Position numbers and translations under genes: made by a program. The notes below the pieces were generated by a model. It was given only the letters and a program-made list of their open reading frames with translations. It searched no databases and was not told the origin of the DNA. Source: a virus. From it: DNA of 53,170 nucleotides. Within the stretch, counting starts at the first letter, position 1. The number at the start of each line of letters is the position of its first letter. Location: positions 1-53,170 of the IMG/VR virus record IMGVR_UViG_3300005441_000001; one strand, given 5' to 3'. Shown piece by piece: positions 1,602-46,635 of the stretch.

Positions 1602-2858
1602 CTACCCGATGGGCGAAGCAGTTGCCTCGCCACTTGTGATGTCATCGAGCAGGGTACCGATCTTATCGCAGATGGTACAGCCACAGACCATCTCGTGGCC
1701 GACCGTAGCGCGTGCGAACTTCTCGTACTTACGCCTACGTCTGCGAGTCATGTTGTCGATGTTGTCTGCCATAACATCGAGCGCGTCAGCTGGGATGAAG
1801 AAACGTTCTTCGAGTAGCTCCATGAGCGTCATGTCGGCAAGTAGCTTGTCAGGTACATCACTGCCTCGTTGAGCTTCCTTAATGCCAGCGAGATAGTGCT
1901 CCAGCTTTCCGTTGAACTTGTCGTAATCGTTGGTATAGTCGTCACAGAGGCGCTCGTAGCTACTTTTGGATACCCCCCTTGAATCGTTATTTGCTATGGG
2001 GAATACCTTCTTGCGCTTCTTTTTGTGTACCGAACCAACGATTTCAGGACTACGCACCGCGACGCTATTACTACTAGCGCCAAAAGGAGTGTTGATTGGC
2101 GAAGTTACAGAGGCACCTACTGGAAACGTCTGCTGTGTTGGTGGGTGGTACGTGTGAACGATACGCCCACCTTCAAGCGTGATGTGCCTGTCGATCGCGG
2201 TAATCGTACCGCAATGCGCACGGTACACCTGACCCTCGTCGAGCTGAAACGCACGGCTCTCTTTGTACCACCCAAGAGGTGTCATAGCGCTCGATAGGAT
2301 ATGCGCCGTCGAGCCCCATACAATACCGCCATTCGGCAGTCGCTCAACGACGAGATCACCACTACGCATACGGCAGAGGTATGCCGCGCCAGGGTCGCGC
2401 TTGTCAAACCACGTCACAGCGCCATACCCTGTAAGCTCTTTGCAGTCGAACTCGTTGTCGATATGCGATATCAGTATCTCAGAGTCAACCTCGTACTCGA
2501 TCCCATACTTCTCGCCTATCTCGCGGTGGTTGTAGATACCACCATTGTGGCACCCTACTGTGTTACCGTACACGAATGGGTGCGCATTACGCTCAGTGCG
2601 AGCGCCGACAGTAGCGAAGCGTGTATGCGCAATGACGTTCACAGTCTGTGCAACCTTCGTGACCATCTCCGAACGTGTGAATGCAGTGCTCTCCTTATGA
2701 ATAGACAGTGTATTGTCCATGAGCGCGTATGCGGCAAAACCGCACGCATGCGCGCCACGAGTCTCAGCACGGTCGCCTAGGAGGTAGGCAAGAATCGCAC
2801 GCTCCTCGGGCAACGGTAGCGCCTCAGGATTGAACTGAAAGCCAAATAATCCGCACAC
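1602..2858 (-). CDS. Class II glutamine amidotransferase
   Basis: An Ntn-hydrolase glutaminase that would release ammonia from glutamine for a partner enzyme. A GTG start at 2858 gives MCGLFGFQ, so Cys2 becomes the N-terminal nucleophile after Met removal. GlmS/PurF-type motifs follow: HTRFATVG near 78-85, NAHP near 91-94, CHNGG near 103-107 and DSE near 125-127. The last 150 or so residues are unrelated to the catalytic domain: a basic segment, a long helical region and a CGCTIC motif near the end. It starts right after the TAA of the amidoligase gene, so the two are translationally coupled and probably work together. The substrate is not evident. Confidence 0.9.
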   Translation of the reverse strand: MCGLFGFQFNPEALPLPEERAILAYLLGDRAETRGAHACGFAAYALMDNTLSIHKESTAFTRSEMVTKVAQTVNVIAHTRFATVGARTERNAHPFVYGNTVGCHNGGIYNHREIGEKYGIEYEVDSEILISHIDNEFDCKELTGYGAVTWFDKRDPGAAYLCRMRSGDLVVERLPNGGIVWGSTAHILSSAMTPLGWYKESRAFQLDEGQVYRAHCGTITAIDRHITLEGGRIVHTYHPPTQQTFPVGASVTSPINTPFGASSNSVAVRSPEIVGSVHKKKRKKVFPIANNDSRGVSKSSYERLCDDYTNDYDKFNGKLEHYLAGIKEAQRGSDVPDKLLADMTLMELLEERFFIPADALDVMADNIDNMTRRRRRKYEKFARATVGHEMVCGCTICDKIGTLLDDITSGEATASPIG

Positions 2859-4460
2859 TTACGCAGCCCTCATGATTCGTGTCTGTGCTGCCTGTTTGAG
2901 CCATGCCTTCTGTTTACGCTGGAGTATTGCCATACTGCGTAGCGGATAGCGGCGTATGCCTTCGCGTGCGTCACGCTCCCGGTATGTGCGCTCAACATAA
3001 TCGCGCACAGCATCGGTAGGCGCAATCGCCTTAAGATACTCACGTCCGCCGACCGCTGTGACGAACTTATACAGCTCAGCAGTATCGACTGACTGCTTAA
3101 GCACGTTCTCAACGAACGCGCAGCAGAGCATTGCCCAGCGTGGTACGATAGAACGGTCGAGCGAGCCGTGGTGTAAGCGAAACTCGATAGTGCCGTACTT
3201 AGTAATCGCCTGAGTATTGAAACCAAGGTAGCGTTCGAGGTAGCCAACGGTTGCGTTGTACACATGGTAATAGTTACCTTGGGCGGCATACAACCGAAGG
3301 GCCTCTGTGTACGTAAAGTTACTCATAGCACGCTGACAGTACCTGTTACGAGAGCGCTCATCGGTAACAAGGTCGTAGAACGCGTCTTCTACAGTGCTCC
3401 ACATGTAGATAAGCTTGCCTAGCTCGTTCTTCCATACTGTTGCAGATACATTATTAGCTTTAATATCCTGCAACCCAACATGCACATGCAACCCGCACGT
3501 ATTGTTAACAACGCCATTCGCGCGGTTGATCGCATGCATAACGCTACCAAGCTGATTCAAGAACCTATTACCCGCTGCCGGTGCCGTGCGTATCTCTACG
3601 CCTCGACTACCCTCGGTAGCGCGAATACTCCCATCTGTACCAATAGCCGTACGCCATTTCACGCAGGTATTGTACAGGTCCGCCAACGTACCGGGCGGAG
3701 GGTTGACAAACCCTGCAATTTCAAGCTCAACGCCTATGGTACGTGTGAGAGGGTTGTACTTCGAAGTTGTCAAATCGTTCATGTAACCGTGGTGGATGCC
3801 ACAGTTGTTGAGCGATAGGATACCGGCGCCCATTGAATTGTTACGCCAGCATGCGCAGCATGCGTGTTGCTCGTTATTGACAGGTCGACAACGTGCGCAT
3901 TGTGTACAGCGTATGCGTACTTGGAGCCTCTCGACTGCTAACTGCCTATGAACAGTAAATACTGTTAAGCAGTCTCCACACGGCCCATGCCCTGCGCATG
4001 TATAGCATATCACCCGACCGTCCGCGCCTTGAATAAGACCAGACATCGGCCTAACAGTCCGGCAGTCGAGGCATCTGCCTATATCTGCTATACGATTCTC
4101 ACAATAACTTGCACTACTGCACATACTACAACAGCGTCCGCACCTTCGCATACCCGTGATACCGCGACTGTTAGTCGCGTGAGCGCGCTCTGGTATAATT
4201 GTCACGCATGCGTGCGCTGTGGGCATACGACAGTTATAACACAAGGTTCCAACGTTTCTCCAATCGGCACGTACGAGCGTAATCCACTCACGTTTCGCCT
4301 CACGCGTACACTTACAGTGCGATGCACAGCGACTGTATCGGCATTGCCGACCGTGGTGGTGTGCGGCGAATGTACGGCGGCCGTTGCGCACAGTGTAAGC
4401 GCTCTGTCCACACGTAGCACGCTCGATCGCACACTCCTTACAGTATTCTCTCGCAGGCAT
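2859..4460 (-). CDS. Amidoligase with multi-zinc-ribbon N-terminus
   Basis: An ATP-dependent COOH-NH2 ligase of the putative amidoligase family (PF12224; glutamine-synthetase-like fold). Domain motifs are GVELEI (about 243-248), GTDGS (274-278), GVEIRTAP (287-294), CGLHVHVG (322-329) and EFRLHHGSLD (426-435). The first 230 residues carry about a dozen CxxC-type pairs (CKEC, CYNC, CGRC, CLDC, CGDC, CTQC, CCAC), suggesting several zinc ribbons that could bind a protein or nucleic-acid target. The SD AGGAGAG fits the ATG at 4460. The class II amidotransferase gene follows with no gap. Amidoligase/GAT-II pairs are known in phages such as phiEco32 and are thought to modify peptides or the cell wall. 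The long zinc array is unusual. Confidence 0.85.
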   Translation of the reverse strand: MPAREYCKECAIERATCGQSAYTVRNGRRTFAAHHHGRQCRYSRCASHCKCTREAKREWITLVRADWRNVGTLCYNCRMPTAHACVTIIPERAHATNSRGITGMRRCGRCCSMCSSASYCENRIADIGRCLDCRTVRPMSGLIQGADGRVICYTCAGHGPCGDCLTVFTVHRQLAVERLQVRIRCTQCARCRPVNNEQHACCACWRNNSMGAGILSLNNCGIHHGYMNDLTTSKYNPLTRTIGVELEIAGFVNPPPGTLADLYNTCVKWRTAIGTDGSIRATEGSRGVEIRTAPAAGNRFLNQLGSVMHAINRANGVVNNTCGLHVHVGLQDIKANNVSATVWKNELGKLIYMWSTVEDAFYDLVTDERSRNRYCQRAMSNFTYTEALRLYAAQGNYYHVYNATVGYLERYLGFNTQAITKYGTIEFRLHHGSLDRSIVPRWAMLCCAFVENVLKQSVDTAELYKFVTAVGGREYLKAIAPTDAVRDYVERTYRERDAREGIRRYPLRSMAILQRKQKAWLKQAAQTRIMRAA

Positions 4461-5563: not shown

Positions 5564-5752
5564 CGTGTGATATTCAGGTATACGGCACCGCGTTGTCAGT
5601 ACGCATGAGACTTGGCTCAATAGGCCGTTGCCATACGTAAAGGCGTTCTAAACCGTGTACCTTAATGCAAGCTGTCCGACGCGCGCCAATGTTATCCTAG
5701 CTACCGACACAGCATGGTACCAGGCACACGGCATGCGACTAGCTACGCACTA

Positions 5753-38788: not shown

Positions 38789-39540
38789 AACCATTTCCTC
38801 AGAAGGTACTCAAGCGACACTTCCATGAGCGAGTAGTTCCCGCGTTTGACCTCGTGCTTCATGAGCACCCCCCGCCAATACGTCGTTCCCTGCGGCGTCA
38901 TATACTCCTCATCATGCTGGTAAAACGATCCTGCAATAACCCCACGCATGCTGCCAGTACCAATCGGCTGAATGTGGACATCAAGGCCAGGCTTATGTCC
39001 AGCCGTGCAGGAGCGCATCTCCCGCAGTACCTGAGTACGTGCATTGGCAGCTCCGAATTTCGTGTTAACGACACGTCCGTTAGCTCCTTTCACGAAGAGG
39101 TGGCAGTAGGCGATCCCGTCGATGACGACTGGCTGGAGGTAAGGGTGGTAATCCCAACCCATCTTTGTAGCAAAGTCACCCGGCATTTCCACCGCGCCTT
39201 GAAGTGTAGGCTGCATCTCGACGAGTCGGTGCGCTCTCGCTTCATGGTTGCCTTCGGTGAATACGAGCCGGGGCCGGTACTTCTTCACACCCATCCACGG
39301 GCGCATGAGAAGTTCCAGCGCATCGTTGCCTGCTTTGATGTCGCCTGCGTAACGGCGAGTGGTTACGTCAGCAAGGTCACGATCGTAGATACAAAGCGAC
39401 TTCATGTCATACCAGTCACCCGCGATGACGATAACGTCGGGGCGCCAGTGCGCGATGTAGTTCCCGAGTGCGGCGATGTGGTTCGTGCGGACGCCGGGTT
39501 GGATTTGCGTATCAGGGATAAAGAGGTGGCGTTTAGGCAT
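38785..39540 (-). CDS. Calcineurin-like metallophosphoesterase
   Basis: 251 residues. Metal-binding motifs are DTQ near residue 9, GDWYD near 42-46, GNHEAR near 97-102, and a later GH. The family hydrolyses phosphomono- or diesters. Here it could process nucleotides or nucleic-acid ends. It is coupled (TAATG) to the dATP/dGTP diphosphohydrolase-like gene upstream. The second phosphoesterase of this genome (52506-53033) is a different branch. Confidence 0.82.
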   Translation of the reverse strand: MPKRHLFIPDTQIQPGVRTNHIAALGNYIAHWRPDVIVIAGDWYDMKSLCIYDRDLADVTTRRYAGDIKAGNDALELLMRPWMGVKKYRPRLVFTEGNHEARAHRLVEMQPTLQGAVEMPGDFATKMGWDYHPYLQPVVIDGIAYCHLFVKGANGRVVNTKFGAANARTQVLREMRSCTAGHKPGLDVHIQPIGTGSMRGVIAGSFYQHDEEYMTPQGTTYWRGVLMKHEVKRGNYSLMEVSLEYLLRKWL

Positions 39541-39980
39541 TAATCCACCCACCGCGCTCGGTAAGCGATTTGTCTATGAATGTCGGCGGCTCGCTTATCG
39601 AGCTGCTTTGCTACTTCATCTTGCAAATTCGAAACCGCTGGCGGTATCTCTCCTGTCTCCCGTACCTGCTTCTGCGCATCTGCCTCGTCATCTTTCTCAA
39701 GCTGCATGTCATACCACATGAGCGCGAAGGCGCACCAGGCGACGCTCGCGTAGTGGCGCTGGCCGTCCTCAGGGTCGCGCGCTTCGCCAGCGCGTGCCGC
39801 CTCAGCGTGGCGCATGAGCGCAGCCTCGATACGGTGTCGCTCTAGACCATTCTTCCAGTTATCGTCGGCGTACTTGCGCGAGCCGAGGGTGTAAACGTGC
39901 GCGAGTTCCTTCAAACACTCGGGAGGGATCAGGTCATACCGCAACTTCCCTTGATCGTTCTTCTTCGCGTCGCTGCTCAT
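39540..39980 (-). CDS. dATP/dGTP diphosphohydrolase-like protein
   Basis: KKNDQGKLRYDLIPPECLKE and YTLGSRKYADDNWKNG are the signature of the phage dATP/dGTP diphosphohydrolase N-terminal family (PF18909), seen in dNTP-pool enzymes and related proteins of Z-genome phages. A middle helical part carries HRIEAALMRHAEA. No PurZ is present, so no 2-aminoadenine pathway is indicated. SD AAGGAGG. It lies between two nucleoside-transferase-like genes and the phosphoesterase, a nucleotide-metabolism cluster. Confidence 0.8.
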   Translation of the reverse strand: MSSDAKKNDQGKLRYDLIPPECLKELAHVYTLGSRKYADDNWKNGLERHRIEAALMRHAEAARAGEARDPEDGQRHYASVAWCAFALMWYDMQLEKDDEADAQKQVRETGEIPPAVSNLQDEVAKQLDKRAADIHRQIAYRARWVD

Positions 39981-42091: not shown

Positions 42092-42207
42092 TCGTCGTAT
42101 GAATACCAGTATTCCATAAGGAAACCGCAAAAGACACAAGGGCGCGCACTACCTTTACTATGTGCGACAACATTACACCTTCTACATACATAGCTGTGAA
42201 CTTTCAC
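42088..42207 (-). CDS. 39-aa zinc-ribbon peptide
   Basis: A GTG start overlapping the polymerase stop (GTGA) and a TGA overlapping the ATPase start (ATGA). MKVHSYVCRRCNVVAHSKGS then CVFCGF: a compact CxxC-CxxC ribbon. The two overlaps give strong context support. It may assist the polymerase or helicase. Confidence 0.7.
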   Translation of the reverse strand: MKVHSYVCRRCNVVAHSKGSARPCVFCGFLMEYWYSYDE

Positions 42208-43610
42208 GCAGCCTCCTTCCACTCCTGTAGGTGGGACCAGCGCTCGCCTGCCTTCGCTTCGGCAGGGTACACAACGTCGCGGTCCCAGTGTAGTACAGTA
42301 CGCTCCATCTCTCTCTTCACGGCGAGCATCGTCGGGGCGAACTCCTCCTCTGGGGCATGGATGATAAATGAATCGTGGACCTGCATGGCGATATACTGCA
42401 TCACGTCGGGCTGGTAGTAAGCGAGGCGCAGTGCGACGAAGTTCATGATGTCGGCAGCTGTACCACTGATCTCGAACGCGAGTGCTTCCTTAAGAGGCGC
42501 GTATCCGAGAAACACACGCGGCCGTCCGAAAGCATTGTACAGTACACGACGGTGGCCGAGCCATCCTTGAAGGGAGAGGGCGGCGGCGGTCTCGTTGATC
42601 CACGCTTCGATTTCTGGGTACTCCGAGAAGATCGCGAGGCGCCACCCTTGGATTTCGCTGAGTTCGACATACTCTCCCTGCTTTGCTAAGACCTGTTGTA
42701 CAGCACGATTGCCGCCGCCACCGCGTACAGCATAAATAAAATTCTTCGCAAGGGTACGGCGGCGCGTTGTAATCTCGAGTCCAGGGAACATGAGATTGGC
42801 GTGAAGTGTATGAAGATCAACCCCGTTTTCGAGGCGTTCAATGAGTTTTGTACTACTGATTCGATATGCCATGACCCGAAGTTCAAGAGCTGCATAGTCC
42901 CACTCACCCAATCGCCATCCAGGCCAACTTGTGAAAAGGGACTTAATGTGTATGCCGCCCCCCTCGCACCGGCATTTGGCTGGAGCGCTGCCGCAAATCG
43001 AGCAACCACGGCTAATGTTTTGGAGATTAGTTCCGTGGGCTCCCCAGGTTCGACAAACAGGACAGAACCCTGGCTTGTTCTTACGGCCGAAGCCTGAGGA
43101 AGCGTATCGAGCGGTCTTAGTATGACATGCCTTGAGGGCAGTTCTAAGAAGTCCATCGTTGCACACTCCTAACGATTGTATATTCTCACGGGCCTTCGAG
43201 AGCCGCGCGCGTTGTAGTAGCGGTATGAGAAAGGGGAACCTTGGTACTTTCCCGGCCGCCTCGCGCGAGGTATTCCACTCCCAGTTCTTCTTGCCTAGTA
43301 CCTCAGCGTCTACCTTGAATTGTGTACCGCCCTCGGTGCGCTCGGTCAGCGGAACGCCGCGCTCGCGAAGTTGGAAAGCGAGCTTGGCGTTGCTGTTCGC
43401 GTCGAAGATGCCATCGCGCGCAAGCGCAGCGTCGAGGGCGGCAAGCCGGGCGGTAAGGCCCATGAGCATGTCGGACTGGCGGGAGAGGTCGATGGGGAGA
43501 CCACGCAGGCCGATGTCTTGGACGATCGGCAGGAGCGGGAGACCGAGGTAATCGTGGATTTGGCGGCAGTTAAGCGGCAAAGGCAGCTCCCATCTCCATC
43601 TCCAACCCAT
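42204..43610 (-). CDS. Family A DNA polymerase, polymerase domain
   Basis: The 468-residue palm, fingers and thumb of a Pol I-type replicase. Motif A EWDYAALELRV (236-246, Asp238), motif B RRRTLAKNFIYAVRGGGG (283-300), motif C QVHDS (410-414). NLQNI (195-199) is flanked by inserted Cys clusters, CPVC (183-186), CSIC (203-206) and CRC (213-215), suggesting a zinc site not found in normal Pol I. The 3'-5' exonuclease is a separate gene overlapping by 41 bases in another frame (+1), so the polymerase is split. The ATG at 43610 follows GGCGGTGG. Confidence 0.92.
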   Translation of the reverse strand: MGWRWRWELPLPLNCRQIHDYLGLPLLPIVQDIGLRGLPIDLSRQSDMLMGLTARLAALDAALARDGIFDANSNAKLAFQLRERGVPLTERTEGGTQFKVDAEVLGKKNWEWNTSREAAGKVPRFPFLIPLLQRARLSKARENIQSLGVCNDGLLRTALKACHTKTARYASSGFGRKNKPGFCPVCRTWGAHGTNLQNISRGCSICGSAPAKCRCEGGGIHIKSLFTSWPGWRLGEWDYAALELRVMAYRISSTKLIERLENGVDLHTLHANLMFPGLEITTRRRTLAKNFIYAVRGGGGNRAVQQVLAKQGEYVELSEIQGWRLAIFSEYPEIEAWINETAAALSLQGWLGHRRVLYNAFGRPRVFLGYAPLKEALAFEISGTAADIMNFVALRLAYYQPDVMQYIAMQVHDSFIIHAPEEEFAPTMLAVKREMERTVLHWDRDVVYPAEAKAGERWSHLQEWKEAA

Positions 43611-44403
43611 TCCACACCACCGCCTGGCCGAATGCGTCCTTCAAGTTGTACTTTCGCACCCGCTCATCAGGGCGTTCGAGAATGCGAGTCCAATCCTTTT
43701 CGTCGTCGTCGTCTTCGTCCTGGTCGTCATCCCACAACTCCTCCTTGTAAGGCCCCATATCGGTTGCGATAGACGTAAGGAATCCAAGTCCGTGCCGAAG
43801 TTCTGAGAAACATGTGTGGTGAGCCACCATCGTGTCCCCGATAATGCCAGCGACGTCGATTCCCCAGGCTGTTTTGATAAGGGCGCGGGCGTTGAAGGGA
43901 GGATAGCCGGTGTCGTATCCGACTGTGTTCTGTCCGATTTTACCGAGCACGCTACTGGTAAAAAATCCCCGGATGAGGTCCATAACACGCAACTCGTCTC
44001 CAGCCGACCAGTATCGAACACCCCCTTGAGAGAGGAAGGGGATGCAGATTCCACGGTGCAGCGTAGGTTGATGGCAGGACCAGATTCCAAGACAGACGAC
44101 ATCACGGTTGAGCGTGGCCTCGAAGTCGATGCTCCAAGGACCAGGATCAGGATTGGGGCTATCGAGCACACTGCGATCGGTGCCCATCCTGCCAATATAA
44201 GTAGCAACGTCATCATAGGTCGGTCGCCACTGCCATTCTTCGATCGGTTGGTGGACATTGGTTGGTCCCTCCTTTTGAATACGTACGGCCCGCTTCCAGT
44301 CGAGGGAAGCGGTGAACTGCATAGTTTGGTTCTTGAAGAAGGAAGCTGGGTGCATCATGGGGAGGATGTAAGTGCCAGCGGGGCGGGTCATCGAGTCCAC
44401 CAT
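43570..44403 (-). CDS. 3'-5' exonuclease domain with UDG C-terminal end
   Basis: 277 residues from the ATG at 44403 (an ATG at 44391 is possible). Exo I SIDFEA (Asp93, Glu95), exo II GQNTVGYD (Asn159, Asp164), exo III YNLKDA (Tyr252, Asp256) mark a DnaQ-like proofreading domain. An acidic insert (DDDQDEDDDDE) lies near 225-235. Residues 1-45 (LPMMHPASFF then DWKRA) match the C-terminal HPA/S motif and end of uracil-DNA glycosylases, whose N-terminal part is at 45745-46635. This suggests an ancestral UDG-exo-pol polypeptide that has been broken. Confidence 0.85.
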   Translation of the reverse strand: MVDSMTRPAGTYILPMMHPASFFKNQTMQFTASLDWKRAVRIQKEGPTNVHQPIEEWQWRPTYDDVATYIGRMGTDRSVLDSPNPDPGPWSIDFEATLNRDVVCLGIWSCHQPTLHRGICIPFLSQGGVRYWSAGDELRVMDLIRGFFTSSVLGKIGQNTVGYDTGYPPFNARALIKTAWGIDVAGIIGDTMVAHHTCFSELRHGLGFLTSIATDMGPYKEELWDDDQDEDDDDEKDWTRILERPDERVRKYNLKDAFGQAVVWNGLEMEMGAAFAA

Positions 44404-44461
44404 ACGATGAACCAGACGAGGGCTGAGAGTTGGCTCGTGAAGAAGAGAGCGAATTCGAAGC

Positions 44462-44755
44462 TCACATATCCTCCACTTTCCTACCGATAGCCGCCATGTT
44501 CTCAGCGATCTTCGCTGCTTCCTCGGCGCGGTCGCTGATTGCCTGGTGGCATTTCTGGAATGTCGCTGCGAGTACAAGGCCCATGTCTTGGAGGAGGTTC
44601 TTCCAGAGTTGTTCCTTCTCCTCGCAGGCACGGACGCGATACTCCCAGGCGCTACGCTGGCGTTCGAGTTCTCGAATGTGGGCGATTAGTTCGGAGCGGT
44701 CGAGGCGTTCGACCTCTGCTGGGTCGAGGACATCGGGGATGTTAGGCGCCAGCAT
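44462..44755 (-). CDS. 97-aa coiled-coil protein
   Basis: MLAPNIPDVLDPAEVERLDR then an Arg/Glu coiled coil (ELIAHIRELERQRSAWEYRV) and a second helix (DRAEEAAKIAENMAAIGRKV). It lies between the broken UDG parts. It overlaps the preceding gene by 14 bases. Unknown function. Confidence 0.65.
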   Translation of the reverse strand: MLAPNIPDVLDPAEVERLDRSELIAHIRELERQRSAWEYRVRACEEKEQLWKNLLQDMGLVLAATFQKCHQAISDRAEEAAKIAENMAAIGRKVEDM

Positions 44756-45134
44756 CTTCCTCTACCTCAACCGCCTCGACAGCCTCGACTTCATCCATCT
44801 TGAGACCTCGCGCCGAAAGAAGTTTCTTAGCTTCCTTCTTGCCGACTTGAGCACGGAGGCGACGGAACTCTGAGCGTGATGCACTGCGGGTCTCCTTGTA
44901 TTCGAGGGGCTCGACGAGCATCATCCAAACACCGCCTTCGAAACCGACGTGGCGGACGGCGCAGGTCCAGCCTTCGTGAGAGAAGTTGGTACCGGGCTGG
45001 AAGATGCGGAGCCAGTCGGGGAGTGGGGGGCGCTCGGTTTCATGGCGAGTCTCGGTCTGCGTAGCGACGATACCCGCTTCGCGCTCTTCGTCGGTCCAGC
45101 GGCTGGCTTTCTCTGGTACTTTCAATTCGTCCAT
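44742..45134 (-). CDS. 130-aa hypothetical protein
   Basis: SD GAGGTGATAGA and ATG at 45134. MDELKVPEKASRWTDEEREA, a beta-rich middle (FEGGVWMMLVEPLEYKE) and an acidic C-terminus (EVEAVEAVEVEEDAGA). Not recognised. One of several genes inserted between UDG parts. Confidence 0.65.
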   Translation of the reverse strand: MDELKVPEKASRWTDEEREAGIVATQTETRHETERPPLPDWLRIFQPGTNFSHEGWTCAVRHVGFEGGVWMMLVEPLEYKETRSASRSEFRRLRAQVGKKEAKKLLSARGLKMDEVEAVEAVEVEEDAGA

Positions 45135-45170
45135 TCTATCACCTCAGCTTTCTTCACAAACTTCCCGTTC

Positions 45171-45572
45171 TCAAGGGACGACAATCGATACCGAGTTGAT
45201 GATCGGGACCGGCGGAGTATTCGGAAGACGAAAGGACTTCGCGTTAGACGCAGCGCTGACCTCCCCCACAGCATTGGCGTACTTCATGGTGAAGGACTGG
45301 TCGATACCTTTCGCGATGGTGCCGGGGATGGGAATGGTAGTACAACGTTCATTCCCTACGAGAGTACCAGGGAGAAGGTCTTCGACAAATGGAGTACCAT
45401 TGAGGAAGGCTGGGGCTGTTGAGATATCAGGGTTCGGTAGCGCGTTGACGAAGCAGACACGCAGCGATGCAGCACTCGCAGCGCCTGTGAAGAGTGTCAG
45501 GAGGAAGAGGGTACAGACGACCATGAATAGCGCGAGGGACATATCGTAGTAACGTTTTGTATATGCGGTCAT
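45171..45572 (-). CDS. Secreted 133-aa protein with Fn3-like domain
   Basis: SD AAAGGAG, ATG at 45572. A basic start (MTAYTKRYYD), a hydrophobic core (SLALFMVVCTLFLLTLFTGA) and probable cleavage after ASA or AASA mark a signal peptide. The rest is a beta domain with a fibronectin III-like end (KYANAVGEVSAASNAKSFRL) and a Pro-rich tail. An exported protein within the replication region is odd; it may act on the envelope. Confidence 0.65.
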   Translation of the reverse strand: MTAYTKRYYDMSLALFMVVCTLFLLTLFTGAASAASLRVCFVNALPNPDISTAPAFLNGTPFVEDLLPGTLVGNERCTTIPIPGTIAKGIDQSFTMKYANAVGEVSAASNAKSFRLPNTPPVPIINSVSIVVP

Positions 45573-45988
45573 GTATTCTCCTTTAGGGTTATGTTCCAGT
45601 TGGCTTTGAGTTTCTCGGCGAGGGCCTGCCAGTTACGCGAGCCGGCGTTCTTTACGAGGAAGAGGGTGAGGTCTTCGTGGCTTACCTCACGGGGACCGAC
45701 AGCGGCGGCTTTGTCACGCCCGCAGACGGGGCATACTGTCCATTCTATGCCGAACATGTTGTTGTGCCCTCGTCTTTCACACCAGAGTTCGTGGTCGCCT
45801 CGCGCTTTGCAGCACGACCAAGGGAGGCTTTCTGTTTCTTCCAGAGTTTGGTCCACTCTACCAAGGCTGGCACCGAGCCAAGTAGCAAAGCGTCGGACAT
45901 CTTCTTCTGTTGTCGCAACAACGCGCGTTCGACAGAACGGTAGAATTTGATGAATGATTTTATCCAAATCTCGAAGGTCTCCCACCAT
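45569..45988 (-). CDS. 139-aa Cys-containing protein
   Basis: MVGDLRDLDKIIHQILPFCR then a middle with CCKARGDHELWC and CPVCGRDKA (about 83-115), suggesting a zinc ribbon. The C-terminal half is helical. The first 244 bases overlap the UDG gene end in another frame; the SD-like AGGAGG touches the ATG, so a GTG one codon later is a possible start. The Cys pattern favours this frame as real. Confidence 0.6.
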   Translation of the reverse strand: MVGDLRDLDKIIHQILPFCRTRVVATTEEDVRRFATWLGASLGRVDQTLEETESLPWSCCKARGDHELWCERRGHNNMFGIEWTVCPVCGRDKAAAVGPREVSHEDLTLFLVKNAGSRNWQALAEKLKANWNITLKENT

Positions 45989-46635
45989 TCCTCCTGTGGA
46001 TGTTGTCCTCGAAGGACGTACTTGATAATGTCCTCTTCTGCCTCGTACTTAAACGGCTGTCCGTCTGTCATCATAATGCGACCACGATAGGGTTCGATAG
46101 GCGTCTTAGTACCGCGAAGCATCGAAAGCGCCGTACCCCCTGCTGGGTTGAGCATGATGTTCGGGTTCTCGGTGATACGTTCGTTCAAGAACCAGCGTGC
46201 GCCGTTCGCGCAGCAACGCTGTGCTCGCTTCCCGGCGGGAGAGTCGATCTTGTTGTCGGGCGGGCGGCACATGACGACGTTCATTAAGTGTATAGCGAGC
46301 CTACCAATGCGCGGCGAACTAGGTTTACGAGCATTAGGCAACAACTCTTGCAAACCAACAGGTGCCAAGTGACGGACACGCATGAAGTATCCAGTTTTAC
46401 CTTGGAGTGGTCGCCCGTACTTCCTCCCGCGCGTGATCTCGTCGGCTTCTTCGTCCGCACCCGGCGCTTCGAAGATGCCGATGTGTTCGACGTTGATCGG
46501 GCCATCATGTCCTACCTTTCGCTGCCCGTTAAGGGGGCAGATGTGGCACATACTGCGCATGCCCACTGGCGCGTTGATTCGCGCTTCTACCCACGAGGGA
46601 TAGTTGGGCGTACGGTAGAAACTCAAGTAGTACAC
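45745..46635 (-). CDS. Uracil-DNA glycosylase-like protein, N-terminal part plus extension
   Basis: A GTG start at 46635, 296 residues. UDG superfamily (family 4/5-like): Cys30/Cys33 (CHIC), the EAPGADEEADE motif (56-66), GRPLQGKTG (74-82), NVVMCRPPDN (119-128) with further Cys at 141-142, and NPAGGTALSML. These Cys may hold a 4Fe-4S cluster. After GRIMM near 189 the sequence leaves the UDG pattern: the catalytic HPA/S segment is missing and is found in the exonuclease gene. The last 100 residues are helical and of another origin. It may be non-functional alone or act in trans. Confidence 0.82.
   Translation of the reverse strand: MYYLSFYRTPNYPSWVEARINAPVGMRSMCHICPLNGQRKVGHDGPINVEHIGIFEAPGADEEADEITRGRKYGRPLQGKTGYFMRVRHLAPVGLQELLPNARKPSSPRIGRLAIHLMNVVMCRPPDNKIDSPAGKRAQRCCANGARWFLNERITENPNIMLNPAGGTALSMLRGTKTPIEPYRGRIMMTDGQPFKYEAEEDIIKYVLRGQHPQEEWWETFEIWIKSFIKFYRSVERALLRQQKKMSDALLLGSVPALVEWTKLWKKQKASLGRAAKREATTNSGVKDEGTTTCSA

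What the first reader, a model, noticed from the sequence alone, without database searches (positions are those of the whole stretch)
43570..46635. UDG-exonuclease-polymerase gene broken into three pieces
The UDG N-terminal part (45745-46635) stops matching the family after GRIMM. The missing HPA segment (LPMMHPASFF...DWKRA) sits at the start of the exonuclease gene near 44355, about 1.7 kb downstream, with four unrelated genes between. The polymerase domain is again separate. SPO1-type polymerases carry UDG, exo and pol in one protein, and the SPO1 gene has a self-splicing intron.
Basis: partly seen in the sequence, partly recalled or inferred. Interest (0 to 1): 0.72.

Follow-up and report, generated by a model that had tools for sequence, protein, structure and literature searches.

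The report
Phage polymerase split through its UDG domain
A DNA-copying enzyme that most related phages make as one protein (uracil-removing domain, proofreading domain, polymerase domain) is encoded here by three separate genes, and one cut runs through the uracil-removing domain itself, so two different proteins would have to come together to complete it.

Summary
A profile of 15 phage UDG-exonuclease(-polymerase) proteins, built without the window, matches the 45745-46635 gene at positions 13-150 and the 43570-44391 gene at 152-370, so the two genes divide one UDG domain almost exactly. Polymerase is a third gene. It is not an assembly accident or a dying gene: contig L008, about 50% (UDG part), 66% (exo) and 68% (pol) identical, has the same split, the same order and homologues of the intervening small genes; L001 has the same truncated UDG gene with the same new tail. 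No intron, intein or homing endonuclease was found. The UDG part has a conserved ~90-residue tail modelled as a helical hairpin, which does not replace the missing strand. The exo gene starts exactly at that strand; in L008 an in-frame stop lies just upstream. Best reading: a three-subunit family A replicase in which UDG is completed in trans by the first ~45 residues of the exonuclease subunit. Assembly itself is inferred. The exo|pol cut is common (22 of 82 loci); the cut inside UDG was seen only here. The window keeps the GEAPG-type, Asn and HPA motifs; L008 has lost all three, so docking, not base excision, may be the kept function.

The parts
45745..46635 (-). UDG-N gene, 296 aa: family 4-like Fe-S UDG core lacking the last strand and HPA loop (residues 1-~190), plus C-terminal tail
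   Evidence: Profile 13-150; AF2 model pLDDT 79; pdb_via to 1vk2 5-154, Z 13.6, 147 residues, rmsd 2.8; homologues in L008 and L001
45748..46071 (-). UDG-N tail (residues 189-296), conserved, modelled as helical hairpin (H200-209, H217-254, H256-284)
   Evidence: 45% and 42% identity to L008 and L001 tails, third codon positions differ most; no UDG match; outside the PDB-aligned range; no convincing match in annotated phages
45569..45757 (-). intervening small gene 1 (62 aa, CPVC motif)
   Evidence: homologue directly after UDG-N in L008, 43% over 54 aa
45171..45572 (-). intervening small gene 2 (133 aa, signal-peptide-like N-terminus)
   Evidence: homologue in L008, 38%
44742..45134 (-). intervening small gene 3 (130 aa)
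   Evidence: homologue in L008, 41%
44462..44755 (-). intervening small gene 4 (97 aa)
   Evidence: homologue in L008, 39%, directly upstream of exo there
44388..44465 (-). 25-codon hydrophobic reading frame whose start overlaps the stop of gene 4 (ATGTGA) and whose stop overlaps the exo start (ATGA); expression not shown
   Evidence: sequence
43570..44391 (-). UDG-C/exonuclease gene, 273 aa; catalytic exo motifs DFE, GQNTVGYD, YNLKD present
   Evidence: profile 152-370, 103 bits; AF2 pLDDT 85; Klenow exo domain Z 20.6; 66% to L008
44260..44391 (-). HPA segment of UDG (about residues 1-44 of the exo protein)
   Evidence: 23.1 bits against at most 1.3 for shuffles; exo profile matches C-terminus of TM0511 UDG
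42204..43610 (-). family A DNA polymerase gene (468 aa), overlaps the exo gene by 41 bases
   Evidence: DNA_pol_A E 1.6e-26, phrog_17, 68% to L008 and L006

Best explanation
This is a split UDG-exonuclease-polymerase replicase of a tailed phage. An ancestral single gene was divided at two places: between exo and pol, as in many relatives, and inside the UDG domain, in the loop before its last strand, where small genes now lie. UDG-N makes the Fe-S UDG core without the last strand; the exonuclease protein begins exactly with that strand, the HPA loop and the following helix. The most likely working is that the exonuclease's N-terminus completes the UDG fold in trans, holding UDG-N and exo together, with pol as third subunit. 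In the window all the usual active-site motifs are present but lie on two proteins, so uracil excision would need assembly. Shown: the split, its exact complementarity, its conservation, the absence of a detectable intron. Inferred: physical assembly, that the strand is the contact, and any activity.
For: Profile from intact relatives matches UDG-N at 13-150 and exo at 152-370 in the window, 13-150 in L001, 78-148 and 152-380 in L008. PDB profile hits divide TM0511 UDG at 161|165. AF2 model of UDG-N has three core strands and then helices, no strand where HPA should be, and aligns to solved Fe-S UDGs only up to their residue ~148-171, before HPA. Same operon in L008 at 50-68% identity. In L008 the exo frame has a stop just before codon 5744, so exo must start at ATG 5747. 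Third codon positions differ most in core, tail and HPA piece, as under protein-level selection. Both halves have the same nearest annotated relative, the intact vir526 protein. No second UDG in the window. Split phage enzymes that reassemble and work are known: NrdA of Aeh1 and gp43A/43B of Aeromonas phage 25 (PMC2988022).
Against: No complex was modelled; assembly is not shown. In L008 the motifs are degenerate (LDTPTRGD, SVTMCHPP, LNPNQFF), so the HPA segment could be a remnant in at least that phage. Only one relative shows both halves; L001 ends before any exo gene and L006 begins inside it. The N-terminal 14 residues of the exo model are coil when folded alone.
Confidence: 0.64

Rival explanations
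1. The gene is split but the parts no longer assemble: UDG-N has taken on a separate role with its new helical tail and the HPA segment at the front of the exonuclease is a remnant.
For: L008 has lost the GEAPG-type, Asn and HPA motifs; UDG-N gained a conserved tail; catalytic motifs are also degenerate in several one-piece relatives.
Against: The HPA segment is conserved between window and L008 (52% over 44 codons, like UDG-N and lower than the rest of exo at 68%) with third positions differing most; UDG-N lacks the strand that would complete its sheet; gene order is kept.
Confidence: 0.26
2. The UDG and exo coding parts are joined at RNA level by a group I, group II or trans-splicing intron, as in SPO1.
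For: SPO1-type polymerase genes often carry group I introns (PMC11878797); the junction is exact.
Against: No intron family at gathering threshold or at E 5; no homing endonuclease; UDG tail and four intervening genes are conserved proteins; exo start overlaps an upstream stop in both phages.
Confidence: 0.04
3. Protein-level joining by a split intein.
For: Split inteins occur in phage replication genes (general knowledge).
Against: In L008 only a few residues precede the UDG strand in the exo protein and a stop codon lies just upstream, leaving no room for a C-intein; the UDG-N tail is modelled as helices, not as the beta-rich Hint fold.
Confidence: 0.01
4. Assembly chimera, frameshift or insertion in one genome only.
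For: Metagenomic contig.
Against: Same arrangement in an independent contig from another sample at 50-68% identity, and the same truncated UDG gene in a third.
Confidence: 0.01

Closest known systems
One-piece phage UDG-exo-pol family A DNA polymerases (phrog_17; vir526 DBA35002.1, SPO1 type, phiLo with solved structure 9qhs, Pseudomonas phage PaBG)
   Same: Same three domains in the same order; both halves of the window's UDG and its exo and pol match them (PaBG from PMC7412058)
   Different: There one gene encodes all; here three, with a cut inside UDG, a new UDG-N tail and four small genes between
UDG-exo | pol two-gene relatives (MW202554 ctLwi270, Caulobacter phage Kuura, 20 of 80 IMG/VR loci)
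   Same: Polymerase domain is a separate gene just downstream
   Different: UDG is complete and fused to exo
Family 4 uracil-DNA glycosylases (TM0511 1vk2, TthUDGA 1ui0)
   Same: Fold of UDG-N, Fe-S cysteine pattern, HPA motif in the second piece
   Different: A single protein of about 200 residues there; divided over two proteins here
Split phage replication genes: nrdA of Aeh1, gene 43A/43B of Aeromonas phages 25 and 44RR (PMC2988022)
   Same: An essential enzyme encoded in two pieces with other sequence between; pieces reassemble
   Different: Family B polymerase or RNR, with a homing endonuclease or an untranslated insert; here small non-endonuclease genes and a cut through an accessory domain
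Vaccinia UDG D4 as processivity factor (PMC10253040)
   Same: A UDG serving as a replication subunit besides, or instead of, repair
   Different: Different UDG family, whole protein, animal virus; analogy only

Membership tests
Family 4 (Fe-S) uracil-DNA glycosylase | UDG fold core | tested here: met
   UDG-N residues 12-194 to 1vk2, Z 13.6, rmsd 2.8, 147 aligned
Family 4 (Fe-S) uracil-DNA glycosylase | Four cysteines for the Fe-S cluster | tested here: met
   C30, C33, C123 and C141/C142 invariant in window, L008, L001; cluster itself not shown
Family 4 (Fe-S) uracil-DNA glycosylase | Motif 1 GEAPG..E and Asn motif | tested here: met
   FEAPGADEE (E, A, P, G kept; the leading G is F here) and LMNVVMCRPP in the window; lost in L008
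Family 4 (Fe-S) uracil-DNA glycosylase | HPA motif on the same polypeptide | tested here: not met
   HPA is on the exo protein; so UDG-N alone is not a complete member
Family 4 (Fe-S) uracil-DNA glycosylase | Uracil excision activity | not testable with these tools
   needs biochemistry
UDG-exo-pol phage replicase | All three domains encoded in order | tested here: met
   UDG-N, UDG-C/exo, pol on one strand in that order
UDG-exo-pol phage replicase | Single polypeptide | tested here: not met
   three reading frames separated by stops, in window and L008
Family A polymerase 3'-5' exonuclease | DxE, Nx3-5D, Yx3D motifs and fold | tested here: met
   DFE, NTVGYD, YNLKD; Klenow exo Z 20.6
Group I/II intron-interrupted gene | Intron RNA structure between coding parts | tested here: not met
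   no intron family even at E 5
Homing-endonuclease split gene | Homing endonuclease gene between the parts | tested here: not met
   no such domain in the four intervening ORFs

The most novel reading that the evidence does not exclude
The glycosylase active site is divided over two replisome subunits, so uracil excision, where the motifs survive, exists only in the assembled replicase; strand complementation serves as the docking joint, and in sister phages such as L008 the joint has been kept after the catalysis was lost.
Probability: 0.4. Interest if true: 0.72.

Novelty: new variant of a known kind. Interest (0 to 1): 0.52.

Why it matters
It would be a natural split-protein joint in a replicase, with a DNA-repair fold as the joint. 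It makes an open question testable: why so many phage family A polymerases carry a UDG domain, often with degenerate catalytic motifs. A split that separates the catalytic residues but keeps the fold allows docking and catalysis to be tested apart. No paper found describes the cut inside UDG, though only open-licence papers could be searched.

Tried and rejected
Intron: Rfam at gathering and at E 5, nothing. UDG-N tail as a replaced HPA segment (YEPDEAIL in L001 resembles YHPSAIL): considered seriously, rejected because the model gives a helix there with no core strand, solved-UDG alignments stop at model residue ~196, and the tail alone does not match the profile. Split intein: no room upstream of the HPA strand. 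Tail relatives in annotated phages: none convincing. Relatives in GTDB genomes: none. More relatives by single proteins, alignments and a DNA pattern in IMG/VR: only L001, L006, L008, L010. L001 contig holds no exo or pol; it ends soon after UDG-N, so this says nothing. Fused-UDG papers: only PaBG and general ones. A two-chain model could not be run here.

Full report
What is there. The window is a 53,170-base IMG/VR virus record of a tailed phage: terminase, portal and virion genes on the + strand, a replication module on the - strand with a Sak4-like/phrog_1366 gene, a phage exonuclease (phrog_2139), the finding, and a DnaB/primase-type helicase. The finding lies between 46635 and 42204.

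Checking the split. Fifteen phage proteins holding UDG plus exo (with or without pol) were aligned and cropped to UDG plus exo; no window sequence was used. The profile matches UDG-N at 13-150 (the alignment then drifts weakly to 183), L001 at 13-150, L008 at 78-148, window exo at 152-370 and L008 exo at 152-380. The first 60 residues of the window exo score 23.1 bits; 300 shuffles reach 1.3. The same segment in L008 scores only 5.7 bits against 5.2 for its best shuffle, so in L008 the identity of the segment rests on its 52% identity to the window segment and on position. Against the PDB the UDG-N profile reaches residue 161 of TM0511 UDG and the exo profile takes up at 165; both of these profiles include intact relatives, so they show where the cut falls rather than give independent proof for the window sequences.

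Conservation. L008 (another sample) has UDG-N, homologues of all four intervening small genes, exo, two extra genes, pol and helicase in the same order and orientation. L001 has UDG-N with the same tail but its contig ends shortly after. In L008 a stop codon lies just before codon 5744, so exo starts at 5747 with MRPSGTLVLPMLNPNQFF; the window's 44391 start (MTRPAGTYILPMMHPASFF) corresponds to it. The UDG tail is a real protein part: 42-45% identity, with third codon positions differing most, though part of it overlaps another open frame and the sequences are too far apart for a dN/dS estimate.

Models. UDG-N was folded with 55 relatives, those from intact proteins cut before the HPA strand so that they could not suggest a fold for the tail. 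The model (pLDDT 79, pTM 0.60) has the UDG core, then a helical hairpin. Solved Fe-S UDGs align within model residues 10-196 and never with the tail. The exo model (pLDDT 85) has residues 1-14 as coil, then two helices, then a Klenow-type exonuclease, Z 20.6, 187 residues, rmsd 2.8; across 264 alignment columns it resembles a viral PolA protein (BFVD A0A6J5MU99, TM 0.73 by query length).

How usual is this. In 82 loci scored together (80 from IMG/VR plus two phages), 59 have UDG, exo and pol in one frame, 22 have a separate pol frame and one shows no pol on the contig. These loci were chosen by matching both UDG and exo, so the count cannot tell how rare the cut inside UDG is; it was seen only in the window and L008, with L001 likely. 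Catalytic motifs are degenerate in many proteins of the annotated-phage set too (e.g. PMBT14 GDNPN, a Desulfofustis phage with NPN for HPA). The IMG/VR set was fetched with a GEAPG-like pattern and cannot be used for this.

Mechanism. Precedents show that phages tolerate split enzymes that reassemble (Aeh1 NrdA, Aeromonas phage 25 gp43A/B; PMC2988022). Here the cut lies in a loop between two strands, and the second piece is just the strand-loop-helix needed to finish the sheet. I therefore think that exo docks on UDG-N by completing its fold. Retention of the arrangement in L008 after loss of all three catalytic motifs suggests that the joint, or another non-catalytic role, is what selection keeps; vaccinia D4 is an analogy for a UDG serving replication (PMC10253040). 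The tail may cover the open sheet edge or bind another subunit; nothing here decides this.

Limits. No complex could be modelled, one relative has both halves, and the literature search covers open-licence papers only. The split and its conservation are near certain (about 0.95); functional reassembly is the inference (0.64).

Noticed in passing
window 42204-43610 (-), pol residues ~182-216: Polymerase has a cysteine-rich, zinc-ribbon-like stretch (CPVC...HGTNLQNI...CSICGSAPAKCRC) around the NLQN motif; kept in L008 and L006, absent from the 19 other polymerases for which the motif was found.
   Followed up: partly
window 39540-39980 (-): dATP/dGTP diphosphohydrolase N-terminal domain (PF18909, E 2.1e-29), a type also found in phages with modified purines; no PurZ search was made.
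   Followed up: no
window 1602-4460 (-): Adjacent glutamine amidotransferase-like and amidoligase-like genes, function in a phage unclear.
   Followed up: no
L008:6489-7559: Two extra genes between exo and pol, the second resembling an RNA ligase by eye; shows that the exo|pol junction also takes insertions.
   Followed up: no
L045 (frame starting at 3612, 1029 aa): The polymerase carries a stretch reading ...DLEVEGTHTFIGNDVALHNS... just before NMQNIP, which looks like the C-terminal end of an intein.
   Followed up: no
window 45171-45572 (-): Intervening gene 2 has a signal-peptide-like start and a secreted-looking body although it sits in a replication operon; homologue in L008.
   Followed up: no
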